Source: Dehalococcoidales bacterium | GTDB lineage: Bacteria; Chloroflexota; Dehalococcoidia; Dehalococcoidales; UBA2162 | Assembly: GCA_030698765.1 (NCBI GenBank) | Contig: JAUYMF010000172.1 | Span: forward strand, 1 to 38,328 | Length of the DNA: 38,328 nucleotides | Direction of reading: 5' to 3' | Shown here: positions 198 to 5,685 of the stretch, piece by piece | How the letters are laid out: each line of letters starts with the position of its first letter | Position numbering within the stretch: the stretch's first letter is position 1 | Notes under the pieces: generated by a model | What the model was told of the DNA's origin: nothing | The model's database searches: none | The model's input: the letters and a program-made list of their open reading frames with translations, nothing else | Made by a program: the position numbers and the translations under genes

Positions 198-246
198 TGG
201 CAGGTTAGTTAATGAAGACAAAAATACGAGAAGGTGGCAGGTTAGT
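198..246 (+). repeat. 12-bp direct repeat around the antitoxin start
   Basis: TGGCAGGTTAGT occurs at 198-209, immediately before the ATG at 212, and again at 235-246 inside the first codons. The period is 37 bp. Position over the ribosome-binding region suggests a possible autoregulatory site for the AbrB-fold protein, but that is inference. Confidence 0.5.
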
Positions 247-451
247 GATTCCAGCCGAATACAGGAAAGCATTGGGACTCAAACCTGGAGATTCGGTGCT
301 CTTATCGCTTGAAGATGGTGAGATAAGAGTCGTTAGCACGCGCCAGGCAGTCGCACGGGCGCAAACTCTGCTCCGGCAATATATCCCTAAAGGTCGCAGC
401 CTGTCTGAGGAACTAATCAAAGAGCGGCGGGACGAGGCGGCTCGTGCCTAA
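212..451 (+). CDS. vapB: AbrB/SpoVT-fold antitoxin, VapB-like
   Basis: A 79-aa protein whose N-terminal half is a typical swapped-hairpin AbrB domain: basic start, then an EGGRLVIPAEYRKALGLKPGD-like segment (about residues 7-27), then LLSLEDGEIRVV (about 30-41). The C-terminal half is charged and helical and probably wraps the toxin. The gene overlaps the downstream PIN-domain gene by 8 bp (TAA at 449-451, next GTG at 444), the usual antitoxin-first arrangement. Members of this family neutralise the cognate PIN ribonuclease and repress their own promoter; the 12-bp direct repeat over its start could be the operator. The ATG at 212 has a modest CAGG Shine-Dalgarno 7 nt upstream. Family call is confident; the partner specificity is inferred from adjacency. 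Confidence 0.88.
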   Translation: MKTKIREGGRLVIPAEYRKALGLKPGDSVLLSLEDGEIRVVSTRQAVARAQTLLRQYIPKGRSLSEELIKERRDEAARA

Positions 452-827
452 AACAGTAATAGATGCCTCAGCATTGCTGGCACTTCTGAACGCTGAACAG
501 GGTGCCGACATCGTGACTGAAACCCTCCTTGGTGGAGTCATCAGCGCAGTCAACCTGTCCGAAGTTATCGCCAAGCTTTGCGATGCAGGCATGCCGGAGA
601 AAGCGGTTCGCCAGGCTATACAACCGCTTGGACTGGACATTGTGCCTTTTGATGAGGAACAGTCCTATCAAGCAGGATTACTCCGTACCTCTACTCAAGA
701 CATGGGTATTTCTTTAGGTGACCGGGCTTGCCTTAGCCTAGCTAAAATGCTAGGAGTAGTCGCACTCACCGCAGACAGGGCTTGGACGGGGCTTTCAGTT
801 GGAGTAACCGTTAAAATAATCCGCTAG
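444..827 (+). CDS. vapC: PIN-domain ribonuclease toxin, VapC-like
   Basis: A 127-aa single PIN domain. The acidic metal-binding residues expected for the family are visible: Asp7 (VIDASALLALL), Glu40 (NLSEVIAKL), Asp93 (LGDRACLSLA) and Asp111 (TADRAW). Family members cleave RNA, often tRNA or rRNA, in a Mg2+-dependent manner and are held inactive by the antitoxin encoded just upstream. The start is GTG, overlapping the antitoxin stop by 8 bp, which implies translational coupling and explains the lack of a separate promoter. All four acidic positions are intact, so nothing suggests inactivation. The RNA target cannot be read from sequence. The gene converges on the small KOW-like gene, with a 54-bp gap. 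Confidence 0.9.
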   Translation: MPKTVIDASALLALLNAEQGADIVTETLLGGVISAVNLSEVIAKLCDAGMPEKAVRQAIQPLGLDIVPFDEEQSYQAGLLRTSTQDMGISLGDRACLSLAKMLGVVALTADRAWTGLSVGVTVKIIR

Positions 828-881: not shown

Positions 882-1064
882 TCAATCGGTTGTTTTTCTT
901 AATTGTTCTTCATAAAATTTGTATGCGCCGTATGACAATTCGACTTCCCATCCATTTTCTTGAGGTTCTGGTGGATTAGATATTTTGCATCTCCTTCTTA
1001 TAGTTCCCTTTTGACCTTTATGGCTTCCACCTTTGATTTCAACTCTGTCACCAATCTTAAACAT
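882..1064 (-). CDS. Small KOW-like protein
   Basis: A 60-aa protein beginning MFKIGDRVEIKGGSHKGQKG: a KOW-type beta motif (alternating hydrophobics, then GxxKGxxGxI) followed by an acidic/aromatic tail. KOW motifs bind RNA or ribosomal/transcription partners, but the function of this protein is unknown. The reading frame opens 18 bp earlier (ATG at 1082, adding MEEKLS). I prefer the ATG at 1064 because GGAGGAG lies 9 nt upstream of it, whereas the earlier ATG has only a poor AGAG. Its upstream region carries a -10 box and a perfect 18-bp palindrome over the predicted start point, so it is probably repressed by a dimeric regulator. It is a monocistronic gene downstream of the four-gene cassette. 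Confidence 0.6.
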   Translation of the reverse strand: MFKIGDRVEIKGGSHKGQKGTIRRRCKISNPPEPQENGWEVELSYGAYKFYEEQLRKTTD

Positions 1065-1111
1065 ACTCAGTTTCTCCTCCATAATATCTCTGGATACTTT
1101 ATTGATAACCT

Positions 1112-1192: not shown

Positions 1193-1762
1193 CTACCCCC
1201 GGCTATCCCTCTGCACCTTCCGGTGAGGCCAGCCGGTGTTCCGTGATTTGTGGTTTGCCCCGATTTCAGGATACATGGTATAAAGCGGGTTTGACCACTC
1301 ATCATCAGTGGCTTTCCGACCGGCCTCAGTCAACCGGTAGTAAATCCTGTCCGGCGCTTCCGGATAATGGTCTTGCATCGCCGAGTTCTCCGTTTCCGAA
1401 GTTGCTTCGACCCACCCCAGTTTTTTAAGCGTCCCGAAATACTTGAGGAAAGAATGATACCGCATGCGGGTGAACTTGTGGGATATCTTCTTCAACTCCT
1501 GCTGGTATATCTTCTCCGCGAGTTCCTCGGTTACATCCTCTCCAGCGAGCACCAGGTTACTGATTCTCTTTTCAGCCCGGGTTCGGGCCGTAGCCGTGGC
1601 CAGGGAGACCTTGTACTCGTAGTTGATGTCCGACTGGGGAGCGCCACGCTCGGGGTTAATCCTGGTAGAGCCTTCCGGTCCGTTACCCAGGAGATACTCA
1701 CGGATAAACCAGCCGGCGCCGAAGGGACGCGCAAAGCCACCGCGGGTGGGTCGAAGCTCCAT
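1193..1762 (-). CDS. Hypothetical protein with a winged-helix-like C-terminal half
   Basis: A 189-aa protein, last gene of a four-gene minus-strand cassette, starting 6 bp after the preceding stop with a GGAG-type site upstream. Not recognised as a named family. Residues about 60-95 are helical and charged. Residues about 95-155 resemble a winged-helix unit: a recognition-helix-like segment (RMRYHSFLKYFGTLKKLGWV) followed by a beta-wing ending DRIYYRLTEAGRKA, the same ending seen in PadR/MarR-type regulators. The N-terminus (RPTRGGFARPFGAGW) is Gly/Arg-rich and the C-terminus is basic. It may be a DNA-binding protein controlling its own cassette or the neighbouring palindrome-carrying promoter. 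Function unknown. Confidence 0.72.
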   Translation of the reverse strand: MELRPTRGGFARPFGAGWFIREYLLGNGPEGSTRINPERGAPQSDINYEYKVSLATATARTRAEKRISNLVLAGEDVTEELAEKIYQQELKKISHKFTRMRYHSFLKYFGTLKKLGWVEATSETENSAMQDHYPEAPDRIYYRLTEAGRKATDDEWSNPLYTMYPEIGANHKSRNTGWPHRKVQRDSRG

Positions 1763-1768
1763 TTCCGA

Positions 1769-2122
1769 TTACTCTCCTTCCCAGACGAATCTGCGGATTA
1801 TCTCGCGCTCGGCGGCCTCACGGCACATCTTTTCAAACTCGTCGCGCCAGGTCATGAAACCAGCCTTAGCCTCTGTCTCCTGACGGAACGCCTGCCAGTG
1901 CCAGTCTTGGAGCGGGTTTAACCCTCTCTTCTCCAGTTCCGGCCCGACAAGCGCCCGAATCATGCCGTCAACCATTGGCAGTGTAACCAGTAAAAACACA
2001 GCATTCATGTGGTCGGCGAGTTTCCACTGCCACTCATGCTTTTTGAATGTCTCCATCATCATTGAGGTGACGGCGAGCGGCATCAAGGCTTTGAACGTCT
2101 CGATGATGTTGTCCTTGTTCAT
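1769..2122 (-). CDS. Hypothetical 117-aa protein
   Basis: Not recognised. The N-terminal 65 residues contain two moderately hydrophobic helices (around residues 10-24, KALMPLAVTSMMM, and 39-58, MNAVFLLVTLPMVDGMIRAL); the rest is charged, Trp-rich and probably helical (DWHWQAFRQETEAKAGFMTWRD). It could be a peripheral membrane or oligomeric helical protein. The start ATG overlaps the TGA of the upstream gene by 4 bp (ATGA), so translation is coupled within the cassette. It is followed after 6 bp by the winged-helix-like gene. No catalytic motif is visible. Confidence 0.68.
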   Translation of the reverse strand: MNKDNIIETFKALMPLAVTSMMMETFKKHEWQWKLADHMNAVFLLVTLPMVDGMIRALVGPELEKRGLNPLQDWHWQAFRQETEAKAGFMTWRDEFEKMCREAAEREIIRRFVWEGE

Positions 2123-2373
2123 TCCCTACCTCCTTGCTCCTGTGTACTGCGAGAGCTGTTTATCGGTTCGAGGCGCATCATCTGCGCCCCCACGGTCAGA
2201 ACCATGGTCAGGAAATTCATTACCTGGGGAGCGGATGCCTCCGGCTTTACGTTGCGCAGAATAATGCGCGCCCGTAGGTTCTCCGGTTCCACGCTGATGA
2301 GCAGTTGCCCACTCTCGACCAAGTTGGCAGACTGCTCCTGTCCCTGTCTGATCATTTCGTCAAAGTTCATCAT
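2119..2373 (-). CDS. Hypothetical 84-aa protein
   Basis: Not recognised. The frame opens at 2379, but I choose the ATG at 2373: it makes the same 4-bp ATGA overlap with the upstream stop that is seen at its own 3' end, and GGAGG lies 7 nt upstream. The protein has a beta-rich centre ([20 protein letters not shown]) and a C-terminal hydrophobic helix ([18 protein letters not shown]). It has no known motif. Its size, alternating strand/helix pattern and position between two equally small coupled genes suggest a subunit of a multi-protein assembly rather than an enzyme. Confidence 0.62.
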
Positions 2374-3101
2374 TTCCATGCCTCCTCGAATTCATCTTTA
2401 CTTATTTCCCGGCCACCGCCGGGATGTGTTCCGGGCTGTGTGCCCTGCGTAGTAGGTTGTTGACCTGCCACCGGCTGTCCGACTGGCGGCATCATGCCCA
2501 TACCGGGCATGCCAAACCCGCCCATCATCTGCTGCATCGTCTGCTGGAGGATAGGCTCGAATACCCTGGTCATCATCGAAGCGAACGGGTTGGGGGAGCT
2601 GGCATTACTGGTATCCTTGACCGCCGACATGAAGTGAGGCATAGCCCCATTTAGCGCCTGCTGAGCAGCCATCTGGGCAACCTCGACGCCGCTGCCTTGG
2701 ACGGCTCTGGCGGCCTCTGCCTGGCCTCTTTGCCAAGTGGACAACAGGTCGGTCAGCGGCTTGATGGTCTCGCTGAACATCCTGAGTCCCATAAGCGGCA
2801 CACTCATCCCGGCCATGAATATCTTCCGGTCCCTGATATTGCCGTCGAAGATTTCGGCAACATCGGTCTCCAGCCACTCGGGCAGCACCGATTCCTTCTC
2901 CTTGCGGATAGCTAGTGAACCGTCTTTCCCCACTGATGTGGGAAACGATTCCTTGCCCGCTTTCACCCTTTTGCGGATACGTTGTCTGACCAAGGATGGT
3001 GAGTAGCCACGGGCTTCGATTTCTTTCTGGCTGAAACCTTCTTCCAGCAGTTCGTCCACTTCCTGACCCAGGTTTTCTTCGTTCTGGTTTTCGTCTGTCA
3101 T
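2370..3101 (-). CDS. Hypothetical 243-aa protein, HTH-like N-terminus and Met/Gly/Pro-rich C-terminus
   Basis: First large gene of the cassette. Residues about 12-45 read as a short helix-turn-helix ([32 protein letters not shown]), similar in pattern to recombinase or sigma region-4 helices. Residues about 85-165 are amphipathic and helical, with a hydrophobic stretch near [16 protein letters not shown]. Residues about 185-235 are low-complexity, rich in Met, Gly, Pro, Gln and Thr, resembling flexible linkers of phage or surface proteins. Its start overlaps the stop of a 28-codon leader ORF by 4 bp (ATGA) and AAGGAGG lies upstream. No family recognised. It may be part of an integrated element, but no integrase or capsid gene is present here. 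Confidence 0.7.
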
Positions 3102-3184
3102 TGTTCCTCCTTTTTCTGGTTACTTTGGGTGGTTTGCACAGCTAAGCAGGCATGAGACTCATGTTCTGCATAGCTGGCATTCAT
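3098..3184 (-). CDS. Candidate 28-aa leader ORF coupled to the cassette
   Basis: ATG at 3184 opens 28 codons ([14 protein letters not shown] then a Gln/Lys/Glu-rich end) whose TGA overlaps the start of the 243-aa gene as ATGA. The Shine-Dalgarno of the larger gene lies inside this ORF. The same stop-start overlap is used at two more junctions in the cassette, which supports real translation. Product unknown; it may serve only to couple translation. Confidence 0.35.
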
Positions 3185-3501
3185 ATCTATCGCCGTGAGA
3201 CGGTTAGCTATGCGATCATTTCAGCACCTCCTCTATAAGCCCCAGGGGGTGGTGACCCCCTACTCCATTCCGGGGGATACCCGGCAGGGCGGATAGACCG
3301 AGATTTATTAGTTTTCATACCTTTCACTTACGGATACCTCCTTGAACTACGGAAATTTGGGCACAAGTCGGCTATATGCCGAAAATTGGAAAGTTAGCGT
3401 GCTTGTGGTTGCCGGAGGTGCCTTTCTTATCGGGGCACCTCCAGGCTCAGTCTAAGGGTTAGATTGTCCTTAGCAGACTGGTGGCGGCTTGTCCGGAGGC
3501 C
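3102..3501. other. Structured leader between the unknown cassette and glgP
   Basis: This 400-bp stretch has no sizeable gene. It carries the two tiny minus-strand ORFs and several hairpins: 3244-3261 (AGGGGGT, 4-nt loop), about 3268-3282 (CCGGG with CCCGG) and 3414-3442 (GGAGGTGCC with GGCACCTCC, 11-nt loop). A possible minus-strand TATAAT lies at 3526-3521, within the glgP promoter on the other strand, but its -35 (TGAAAA) is weak. I did not recognise a known riboswitch class. Confidence 0.4.
3208..3318 (-). CDS. Candidate 36-aa basic leader peptide
   Basis: ATG at 3318 is preceded by AAAGG and, 16 nt upstream, AGGAGG. It encodes 36 residues beginning MKTNKSRSIRPAGYPPEW, then a Pro/Gly-rich end. 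The DNA folds into two hairpins (3244-3261 and around 3268-3282), so the ORF may instead be an accident within a structured leader. A second strong AGGAGGTG near its end sits 5 nt before an ATG-ATC-GCA-TAG mini-ORF in the same frame. Confidence 0.25.
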   Translation of the reverse strand: MKTNKSRSIRPAGYPPEWSRGSPPPGAYRGGAEMIA

Positions 3502-3558: not shown

Positions 3559-5685
3559 ATGACATCTCCGAAGTTGCCCGAGCGCATTAACCGGCTTGAT
3601 GAGCTAGCCAATAATTTATGGTGGAGCTGGCATGAAAATGCCCGCACGTTGTTCCGTGCCCTGGATTACCCGCTCTGGAGAGAGAGCGGTCATAACCCGA
3701 TAAAGGAACTGCGTGAAGTAAGTCAGGATACGCTGCATGCGGCGGCTGTTGACCGTTCCTTTCTGGCTCTCTATGACTCTGTAATGTCAGCTTTTGATGT
3801 GGATATGGCCGCCAAAAATACCTGGGTTGCTAATGATTGTCCCAACCTTCGGGAGTGCCCGGTGGCCTTTTTTTCCATGGAATATGCGATACACAACTCC
3901 CTGCCGATTTATGCCGGCGGGCTGGGTGTCCTGGCCGGTGATATCTGCAAGGAGGCGAGTGACCTCGGTATGTCACTTATTGCCGTTGGCTTTATGTATC
4001 CTCAGGGATACTTCCACCAGCATATCCTGCCCGATGGCACGCAGGAAGAGATATACCACCAGCTTGATTTTGGTGAGGCACCTGTCACCCGGGTCCTTTC
4101 GCCACAGGGCGGTGTCTCGGTGGCGAAAGTGGAACTGGGTGAGGTTGTTCTCGATATCGGGGTCTGGCTGGTTAATGTCGGCGGCACCAGTGTCTATCTG
4201 ATGGATACTAACCTCGAAACTAACCCTGTTCATCATCGTGCTCTCTCGGCGCGACTTTACATCGCCGACCCGGAGCTGCGCCTGCAGCAGGAAATCGTGC
4301 TCGGGATTGGCGGCGTCAGGGTGCTGCGGGCGCTGGGTATTGAGCCCTCAATCTGGCACAGTAATGAGGGGCATACCGCCTTCATGATGCTGGAACGTGT
4401 CCGTGAAGCGGTGATAAGCGGAATGAACTTCGTCGATGCTGTGCGCAGTGTACAGGCGAAGACCGTTTTTACCACCCATACCCCGGCCTTAGCCGGTCAC
4501 GATGTTTTCCCGGCGGCGATGATGGAGAGGTATTTCCGGCACTACTGGGAAGCTCTGGGCATCGACCGGGAAAAGTTCCTTCAACTGGGACAACGGAGCA
4601 GCTACGATGGCCAGTCTTTTAATATGACGGCACTGGCTTTAAGGATGGCTAACCAGCGCTCAGGGGTGAGTCAGTTGCATGAAAAAGTTACCCGCCGGAT
4701 GTGGCGGCGGCTCTGGCCGGAAGCCACCGAAGACCAGGTTCCGATATCTCATGTAACCAACGGAGTTCATGCCCCATCATGGATTGCCCGGGAAATGTGC
4801 GGTCTCTTTGATGAGTACCTCGGTAAAGACTGGATGAGAGACCAGGACGATAGTAAGATGTGGGAAGGGGTACTCAGTATCCCGGATGAGAAGCTCTGGG
4901 CTGTCCGTCAGCGGCTGAAGAACAAATTGGTTGGCGCCGTTCGGGAGCGTATGCGGAGCCGGTGGATAGAAGATGATGTTCCCTGGTCGCAGGTGCTGGC
5001 GATGGGTGCCTTCCTTAACCCGGAGGCGCTGACCATAGCCTTTGTGCGTCGTTTTGCCGAGTACAAGCGTCCAGCCCTTATTTTTCAGGATGTTGAACGC
5101 TTAAAGCGAATCATCAATAACGAATATCATCCGGTCCAGATACTCTTTGCCGGCAAATCTCATCCTGCTGACCTGGCCTCTAAACGCCTGATCCAACAGG
5201 TGTATAATCGGGCTACAGACCATAATTGGCGGGGACGAATCGTCTTCATCGAGGACTACGATATTCATATCGCGCATTACCTGGTTCACGGAGTGGATGT
5301 TTGGCTGAACGTACCACGGCGTCTGCAGGAAGCCAGCGGCACCAGCGGGATGAAGGCGGCACTGAATGGTGTGCTCAACCTCAGTGTCCGTGACGGGTGG
5401 TGGGACGAAGGGTTCAACGGCAGCAACGGCTGGGCGCTCGGGGATGGACCTGAAGCGATTAGTGCTGAGAAAGAAGATGCGGCGGATGCTGAGGCGCTCT
5501 ACCGTATGCTGGAAGAAAAGATTGTGCCCATGTACTACTCGAGAGACCGCAGTGGCGTGCCCGATGCCTGGATGCGCATGGTCAAAGAATCAATACGTTC
5601 CATCGCGCCGGTCTTTTGCACGCGGCGCATGCTCAAAGAATACGCGGAGCGCATGTACCGTACGGCTGTGCAACCACGTGAATAG
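3559..5685 (+). CDS. glgP: Alpha-glucan (glycogen) phosphorylase, GT35
   Basis: Releases glucose-1-phosphate from alpha-1,4-glucan ends using phosphate and pyridoxal phosphate; cytoplasmic. The 708-aa protein has the DUF3417-type N-terminal segment of the short bacterial/archaeal phosphorylases (residues about 3-110, LANNLWWSWHENAR), then the GT35 catalytic core with FSMEYAIHNSLPIYAGGLGVLAGD (about 107-130) and FVRRFAEYKR (about 495-505). The PLP-binding region is EASGTSGMKAALNG, with the predicted Schiff-base lysine at about Lys599. The motif differs from the E. coli-type GTGNMK by Ser-Gly, as usual in this subfamily. It has its own promoter and is convergent with the treY end of the glucan operon, only 6 bp separating the stops. 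It supplies the phosphorolytic exit from the polymer made by GlgE/GlgB. Confidence 0.95.
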   Translation: MTSPKLPERINRLDELANNLWWSWHENARTLFRALDYPLWRESGHNPIKELREVSQDTLHAAAVDRSFLALYDSVMSAFDVDMAAKNTWVANDCPNLRECPVAFFSMEYAIHNSLPIYAGGLGVLAGDICKEASDLGMSLIAVGFMYPQGYFHQHILPDGTQEEIYHQLDFGEAPVTRVLSPQGGVSVAKVELGEVVLDIGVWLVNVGGTSVYLMDTNLETNPVHHRALSARLYIADPELRLQQEIVLGIGGVRVLRALGIEPSIWHSNEGHTAFMMLERVREAVISGMNFVDAVRSVQAKTVFTTHTPALAGHDVFPAAMMERYFRHYWEALGIDREKFLQLGQRSSYDGQSFNMTALALRMANQRSGVSQLHEKVTRRMWRRLWPEATEDQVPISHVTNGVHAPSWIAREMCGLFDEYLGKDWMRDQDDSKMWEGVLSIPDEKLWAVRQRLKNKLVGAVRERMRSRWIEDDVPWSQVLAMGAFLNPEALTIAFVRRFAEYKRPALIFQDVERLKRIINNEYHPVQILFAGKSHPADLASKRLIQQVYNRATDHNWRGRIVFIEDYDIHIAHYLVHGVDVWLNVPRRLQEASGTSGMKAALNGVLNLSVRDGWWDEGFNGSNGWALGDGPEAISAEKEDAADAEALYRMLEEKIVPMYYSRDRSGVPDAWMRMVKESIRSIAPVFCTRRMLKEYAERMYRTAVQPRE

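What the first reader, a model, noticed from the sequence alone, without database searches (positions are those of the whole stretch)
1193..3318. Four-gene unknown cassette with repeated ATGA overlaps and tiny leader ORFs
Four proteins of 189, 117, 84 and 243 aa match no family I know. Three junctions use the same 4-bp ATGA overlap, including one with a 28-codon leader ORF. The first large protein has an HTH-like N-terminus and a Met/Gly/Pro-rich tail; the last looks like a winged helix; the middle one has hydrophobic helices. Tight coupling of small unknown proteins next to a toxin-antitoxin pair suggests a compact accessory system, possibly from a mobile element or virus.
Basis: partly seen in the sequence, partly recalled or inferred. 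Interest (0 to 1): 0.6.

Follow-up and report, generated by a model that had tools for sequence, protein, structure and literature searches.

The report
Mobile-element control cassette in Dehalococcoidia
The four unknown genes are real and belong to a family of integrated mobile elements (possibly viruses) found so far only in Dehalococcoidia, the bacterial class that includes pollutant-dechlorinating species; they look like DNA-binding control parts of the element rather than a stand-alone defence or toxin system.

Summary
In detail: four minus-strand genes (A 243, B 84, C 117, D 189 aa) lie at 3101-1193, with ATGA overlaps leader/A, A/B and B/C and a 6-nt C/D gap. None reaches a curated cut-off in Pfam or NCBIfam; PHROGs and PADLOC give nothing convincing. 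The leader ORF is not conserved. What is conserved there is non-coding DNA: 47 of 49 bases identical in a second genus, and a GC-rich GGTNACC palindrome usually 137-174 nt upstream of A (15 of 22 A-upstream regions against 2 of 101 other intergenic stretches). Relatives lie in integrated elements of Dehalococcoidia of about 24 kb or more, with recombinases, primase, DnaJ-like, AAA+, Met-rich membrane, tail-fibre-like and subtilase genes, and in small A-B-recombinase-D cassettes. A has interchangeable N-terminal DNA-binding domains (HTH or C2H2 finger). D is winged-helix-like, abuts a zinc-ribbon tyrosine recombinase in 17 of 40 loci, and was found only within the class. Best reading: a mobile-element control module, with A as cis-site binder and D as recombinase partner. 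Element membership is well supported; the mechanism is inferred. Virus status is unresolved: no terminase, portal or capsid gene was found among proteins scanned. The adjacent toxin-antitoxin pair is probably cargo.

The parts
2370..3101 (-). gene A, 243 aa: N-terminal three-helix HTH, conserved central helical region ([39 protein letters not shown]), disordered Met/Gly/Pro/Gln-rich tail and short acidic C-terminal helix; proposed cis-site-binding protein
2119..2373 (-). gene B, 84 aa (start 2373; 86 aa if start 2379), small protein, function unknown; 39% identical to the B of L010
1769..2122 (-). gene C, 117 aa, with a hydrophobic segment that may be membrane-spanning; 29% identical to the C of L010
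1193..1762 (-). gene D, 189 aa, winged-helix-like, multicopy family found only in Dehalococcoidia; proposed accessory factor of the element's tyrosine recombinase
3245..3260 (.). GC-rich inverted repeat GGGGGTGGTGACCCCC (GGTNACC class), 156 nt upstream of A; the same class of site lies upstream of A in most other elements
3098..3184 (-). 28-codon leader ORF; probably not a gene (no Shine-Dalgarno sequence, not conserved)
212..451 (+). MazE/AbrB-type antitoxin, probable cargo
444..827 (+). PIN-domain toxin, probable cargo
882..1082 (-). 66-aa KOW-motif protein (just below the Pfam cut-off), probable cargo

Best explanation
The cassette is a fragment or reduced form of an integrated mobile element (possibly a provirus) restricted to Dehalococcoidia. 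A-B-C forms an operon behind a structured non-coding control region. A probably binds sites in that region through its exchangeable N-terminal DNA-binding domain, and acts as a replication or segregation initiator and autoregulator of the element. B and C are its small partners, C possibly at the membrane. D is a winged-helix protein that works with the element's zinc-ribbon tyrosine recombinase, for example as a directionality or accessory factor. In the window the recombinase, primase and AAA+ genes are absent and the assembly contig ends beyond the toxin-antitoxin pair, so the module is probably a remnant or minimal derivative kept beside cargo. Shown here: the genes, their homologues, their neighbours and the conserved upstream sequence. 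Inferred: every molecular function.
For: Relatives of A and D sit with serine recombinase, tyrosine recombinase, RecT, DnaJ-domain, AAA+ ATPase, DUF3854 primase, ArdC and subtilase genes. Elements adjoin tRNA genes in L094 and L127. Small A-B-recombinase-D cassettes lie beside host-type genes in L016/L013 and L021. D directly abuts the zinc-ribbon tyrosine recombinase in 17 of 40 non-redundant loci, 14 just upstream and 3 just downstream, often overlapping. D was found in 52 of 393 class genomes, up to 6 copies each, with no hit outside the class in the phylum sample. A has an HTH in the window type, a C2H2 finger plus HTH in L017/L018 and a C2H2-like finger in L014/L128. A GGTNACC palindrome lies upstream of A in 15 of 22 cases against 2 of 101 other intergenic stretches, 13 of the 15 at 137-174 nt. 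The window's upstream core is 47/49 identical in another genus and recurs, diverged, in G000:C68.
Against: No binding or mobility was observed. The AlphaFold model of A is poor apart from the N-terminus (mean pLDDT 58, pTM 0.23), and the D model has no significant PDB match (best E 0.33). Repeats upstream of A are not significantly denser than in other windows by a simple count. In G000:C68 the conserved core precedes a different, RHH-like gene rather than A, so it could be an element-end site instead of A's operator. Flanking direct repeats were not found in the copies tested. The palindrome was noticed on the same sequences it was then counted on, and those sequences are related.
Confidence: 0.5

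Rival explanations
1. The cassette is just a decayed piece of a larger integrated element: separate deletions brought the AAA-adjacent A-B-C end and the recombinase/D end together, and it now has no function of its own.
For: In the ~24-kb elements A-B-C and D lie at opposite ends of the late region; truncated A and D copies exist, e.g. L066; the window lacks the recombinase and all replication genes.
Against: All four ORFs are intact, A and D show low dN/dS, and A-B-C-D order with the same upstream core is shared with another genus, so the arrangement is old and kept.
Confidence: 0.3
2. A-B-C are structural or virion-assembly genes of a tailless or unusual virus (A scaffold-like with long helices and a C-terminal peptide, C a membrane protein), and D is a late regulator.
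For: Larger elements encode Met-rich small membrane proteins, tail-fibre-like proteins and a subtilase soon after A-B-C; A is predicted as long helices with a disordered tail; a sphaerolipovirus-like provirus with a serine integrase has been described in Dehalococcoides CBDB1 (PMC4158269).
Against: A carries an HTH or zinc finger at its N-terminus and sits with primase, DnaJ and AAA+ genes; a profile of one virion-gene candidate had no PDB match; no FtsK-like packaging ATPase or capsid match was seen among the proteins scanned.
Confidence: 0.15
3. A compact defence or anti-phage system built on the four small proteins.
For: Adjacent toxin-antitoxin pair; other elements carry TIR or AAA_13 cargo on the cargo side of D.
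Against: PADLOC gives only marginal scores for A and C (E 0.02-0.04); homologues sit at fixed places in element backbones, not among variable cargo.
Confidence: 0.04

Closest known systems
Putative sphaerolipovirus-like provirus of Dehalococcoides CBDB1 (PMC4158269, Extremophiles 2014)
   Same: integrated element of the same bacterial class with a serine integrase
   Different: that provirus has an FtsK-like packaging ATPase and a VP16-like capsid protein; neither was found among the proteins scanned here (the AAA+ scored as AAA/MCM/RuvB; a beta-rich virion candidate gave no PDB match). CBDB1 itself was not compared
ssrA-specific genomic islands of Dehalococcoides (PMC3146451)
   Same: Dehalococcoidia integrated elements with serine recombinases and cargo
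   Different: those insert at ssrA and often carry reductive dehalogenases; the elements here were seen next to tRNA genes or protein-coding host genes and carry virus-like gene blocks
Iteron-type replication initiators and plasmid centromere-binding proteins
   Same: small DNA-binding protein encoded directly downstream of a repeat/palindrome region; primase, DnaJ and AAA+ genes nearby in the larger elements
   Different: no Rep or ParB family match at a curated cut-off; the central region of A matches no known family
PadR-type winged-helix regulators
   Same: predicted winged helix in D, weak PadR score
   Different: below the Pfam cut-off, only 1 of 25 family members scores, and a distinct conserved N-terminus (RGGFxRPFGxGWFIREYLxGxGPxGS)

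Membership tests
Dehalococcoidia integrated mobile element | homologues lie with integrase/recombinase and element genes | tested here: met
Dehalococcoidia integrated mobile element | patchy, multicopy, class-restricted distribution | tested here: met
Dehalococcoidia integrated mobile element | direct repeats (att) at both ends of the copy in the window | not testable with these tools
   contig ends at position 1; repeats also not found in the complete-genome copies examined
Tailed prophage (Caudoviricetes) | terminase, portal and major capsid genes | tested here: inconclusive
   none among about 20 element proteins scanned against PHROGs, only tail-fibre-like matches; not every ORF was scanned
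Sphaerolipovirus-like provirus of CBDB1 | serine integrase | tested here: met
   met in the larger elements: L094 7552-9210 matches Resolvase, Recombinase and Zn_ribbon_recom; the window itself has none
Sphaerolipovirus-like provirus of CBDB1 | FtsK-like packaging ATPase and VP16-like capsid protein | tested here: inconclusive
   AAA+ gene matches AAA/MCM/RuvB, not FtsK; profile of a candidate virion protein had no PDB match
PadR family (for D) | Pfam PF03551 above the gathering score | tested here: not met
   20 bits against 27; 1 of 25 members
Iteron Rep initiator (for A) | Rep-type winged-helix family match | tested here: not met
   no Pfam or NCBIfam match for the window's A; no Rep match in the family
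Iteron Rep initiator (for A) | direct repeats upstream of its own gene | tested here: inconclusive
   clear repeats in some elements (L018 type, L108, L020, L014, L128) but not enriched overall
Recombination directionality factor (for D) | encoded next to a recombinase | tested here: met
   17 of 40 loci; not in the window
Recombination directionality factor (for D) | biases the direction of recombination | not testable with these tools
   needs an in vitro or in vivo recombination assay
Known anti-phage defence system | match to a PADLOC model | tested here: not met
   only E 0.02-0.04 matches

The most novel reading that the evidence does not exclude
The short A-B-(C)-(recombinase)-D cassettes are a new kind of miniature satellite element that keeps only the cis-site, its binding protein and the recombination partner, and depends on the complete ~24-kb elements of the same class for movement.
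Probability: 0.12. Interest if true: 0.7.

Novelty: new variant of a known kind. Interest (0 to 1): 0.42.

Why it matters
Mobile elements move reductive dehalogenase genes among Dehalococcoidia, yet most genes of the class's virus-like elements are unnamed. Here four orphan genes are tied to one element family by position, homology and a conserved non-coding site, which gives markers (A, D, the zinc-ribbon tyrosine recombinase and the GGTNACC site) to find such elements and a testable idea of how they are controlled.

Tried and rejected
Viral contig collection with A, D and a Met-rich membrane protein: no relatives. Phage and plasmid records with D: none; phage records with the element primase gave only partial matches to primases of tailed phages and Virus Rctr41k; a tail-fibre-like and a candidate virion protein gave none. 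Rfam over the region: nothing; folding of the leader region is not significant (z -1.7). Host synteny around the glycogen-phosphorylase gene to find an empty site: upstream regions differ in every relative, uninformative. Attachment repeats: not found. Repeat enrichment upstream of A by a simple count: not significant. A first count of recombinase-D distances was confounded by overlapping reading frames and redone. Literature on Dehalococcoides and Dehalogenimonas elements was searched; the 2012 prophage paper (Waller et al.) is not held.

Full report
What is in the window. The order of transcription on the minus strand is A (3101-2370), B (2373-2119), C (2122-1769), D (1762-1193). A convincing ribosome-binding site favours the 84-aa start of B. 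The leader ORF has none. Host-type genes begin right of the cassette at 3559 with a 708-aa protein that reads like a glycogen/alpha-glucan phosphorylase (by eye); left of D lie a KOW-motif protein and a MazE/PIN toxin-antitoxin pair, and the assembly contig ends. The window is one whole contig of a draft genome.

Family searches. Pfam, PHROGs, NCBIfam and PADLOC name none of the four. D scores weakly as PadR, below cut-off and in only 1 of 25 family members. AlphaFold gives D a helix-rich fold with a winged-helix-like part (pLDDT 70.6, pTM 0.64, three-sequence alignment); the nearest solved folds are Sso10a-2, AspA and MarR proteins, none significant. A has a fairly confident three-helix N-terminus (pLDDT about 88) and otherwise low-confidence long helices and a disordered tail. 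A profile of the A family meets HTH proteins in the PDB at its N-terminus, weakly.

Who else has it. Close relatives of A lie in a few Dehalococcoidia genomes, plus one fragment in a MAG labelled Planctomycetota, at a contig end and possibly misbinned. L010, another genus, has A-B-C-D in the same order (identities about 66, 39, 29 and 93%, the last over 55 residues before its contig ends). L013/L016 and L021 have A-B-tyrosine recombinase-D; L012 has A, B-like, C-like, an HTH-like protein and a tyrosine recombinase. In one draft genome A and D without a recombinase lie at a contig end (L015). D alone is far commoner: 30 of 101 relatives, 52 of 393 class genomes, none outside the class in a phylum sample.

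The larger elements. In complete genomes (G019, G055, G083; G019 and G055 look by size like Dehalococcoides mccartyi strains, an inference from memory) diverged A relatives lie in integrated elements. Copy 1 in G083 spans about 623.8-648.2 kb: serine recombinase, HTH and ImmA-like proteins, DUF3854 primase, small zinc-binding-like and membrane proteins, AAA+ ATPase, A, C-like, a HATPase protein, two Met-rich 64-67-aa membrane proteins, virion-like and tail-fibre-like proteins, subtilase, an ArdC-type protein and D at the far end, next to host genes. The G019 element starts at a tRNA cluster and also has a DnaJ-domain protein, a B-like protein and, in its late region, a zinc-ribbon tyrosine recombinase. 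Cargo next to D differs from element to element: TIR protein, metal ATPase, antitoxin-like and others. No terminase, portal or capsid gene was recognised among the proteins scanned, and a candidate virion protein has no PDB relative, so virus status is open. A sphaerolipovirus-like provirus with a serine integrase is on record for Dehalococcoides CBDB1 (PMC4158269); whether these elements are of that kind could not be decided.

The non-coding part. A diverged copy precedes a different gene at the edge of contig C68 of the same genome. A GC-rich palindrome around GGTNACC lies upstream of A in 15 of 22 non-redundant cases, 13 of them at 137-174 nt, against 2 of 101 other intergenic stretches of the elements (Fisher p 3e-12). 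The figure overstates the certainty because the motif was noticed in the same data and the sequences are related; by groups of related elements about 8 of 13 have it. Element-specific repeats also appear there (for instance three GGGTATNYACA in the L018 type), but a simple repeat count does not separate these regions from controls.

Mechanism. The N-terminus of A changes between HTH and C2H2-finger types while features of the middle and the acidic C-terminal end are kept, and the region upstream of A carries a conserved palindrome together with element-specific sequence. This suggests that A binds its own upstream region. With primase, DnaJ and AAA+ genes directly upstream in the larger elements, initiation of replication or segregation, with autoregulation, is the most economical role; a purely transcriptional role is possible. 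D follows or precedes the zinc-ribbon tyrosine recombinase immediately in 17 of 40 loci, often with overlapping ends, which suggests a partner of that enzyme. In the window the recombinase is missing. Low dN/dS of A and D argues that the module was maintained at least until recently.

Confidence. Mobile-element origin: about 0.85. A as binder of the upstream site: about 0.5; replication/segregation role: about 0.35. D as recombinase partner: about 0.45. The combined statement is scored 0.5.

Noticed in passing
L062:1696-2871 and L063:3391-4533 (contigs C159 and C138 of the window's genome), L040: D occurs as a tandem fusion of two D domains in one 380-391-aa protein.
   Followed up: no
L094:17763-18155, L057:7868-8224, L018:8255-8581, L020:2115-2360 and 2655-2867, L017:363-668 and 2239-2769, L052:13829-14137: Several otherwise different small element proteins share a motif like W..NxxxAMF[GE], mostly near the C-terminus; it could be a sorting or partner-binding signal.
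   Followed up: partly
L132:6826-6889 and L113:1226-1289: A 64-nt sequence, 84% identical in two genera, lies between a host gene and an element start; a possible element end or attachment region.
   Followed up: partly
L132:7250-7300: Three TGGTATACA repeats overlap the start region of an RHH-like ORF at the end of contig C68 of the window's genome.
   Followed up: no
L056:10091-13405, L095:9596-11704: TIR-domain and AAA_13 proteins, likely defence cargo, sit on the cargo side of D in the larger elements.
   Followed up: no
L010:3784-4452: The L010 element carries a short DNA polymerase III beta (sliding clamp) gene upstream of A.
   Followed up: no
L011:2-622: A-family fragment in a contig labelled Planctomycetota, at the contig end; possibly misbinned.
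   Followed up: no
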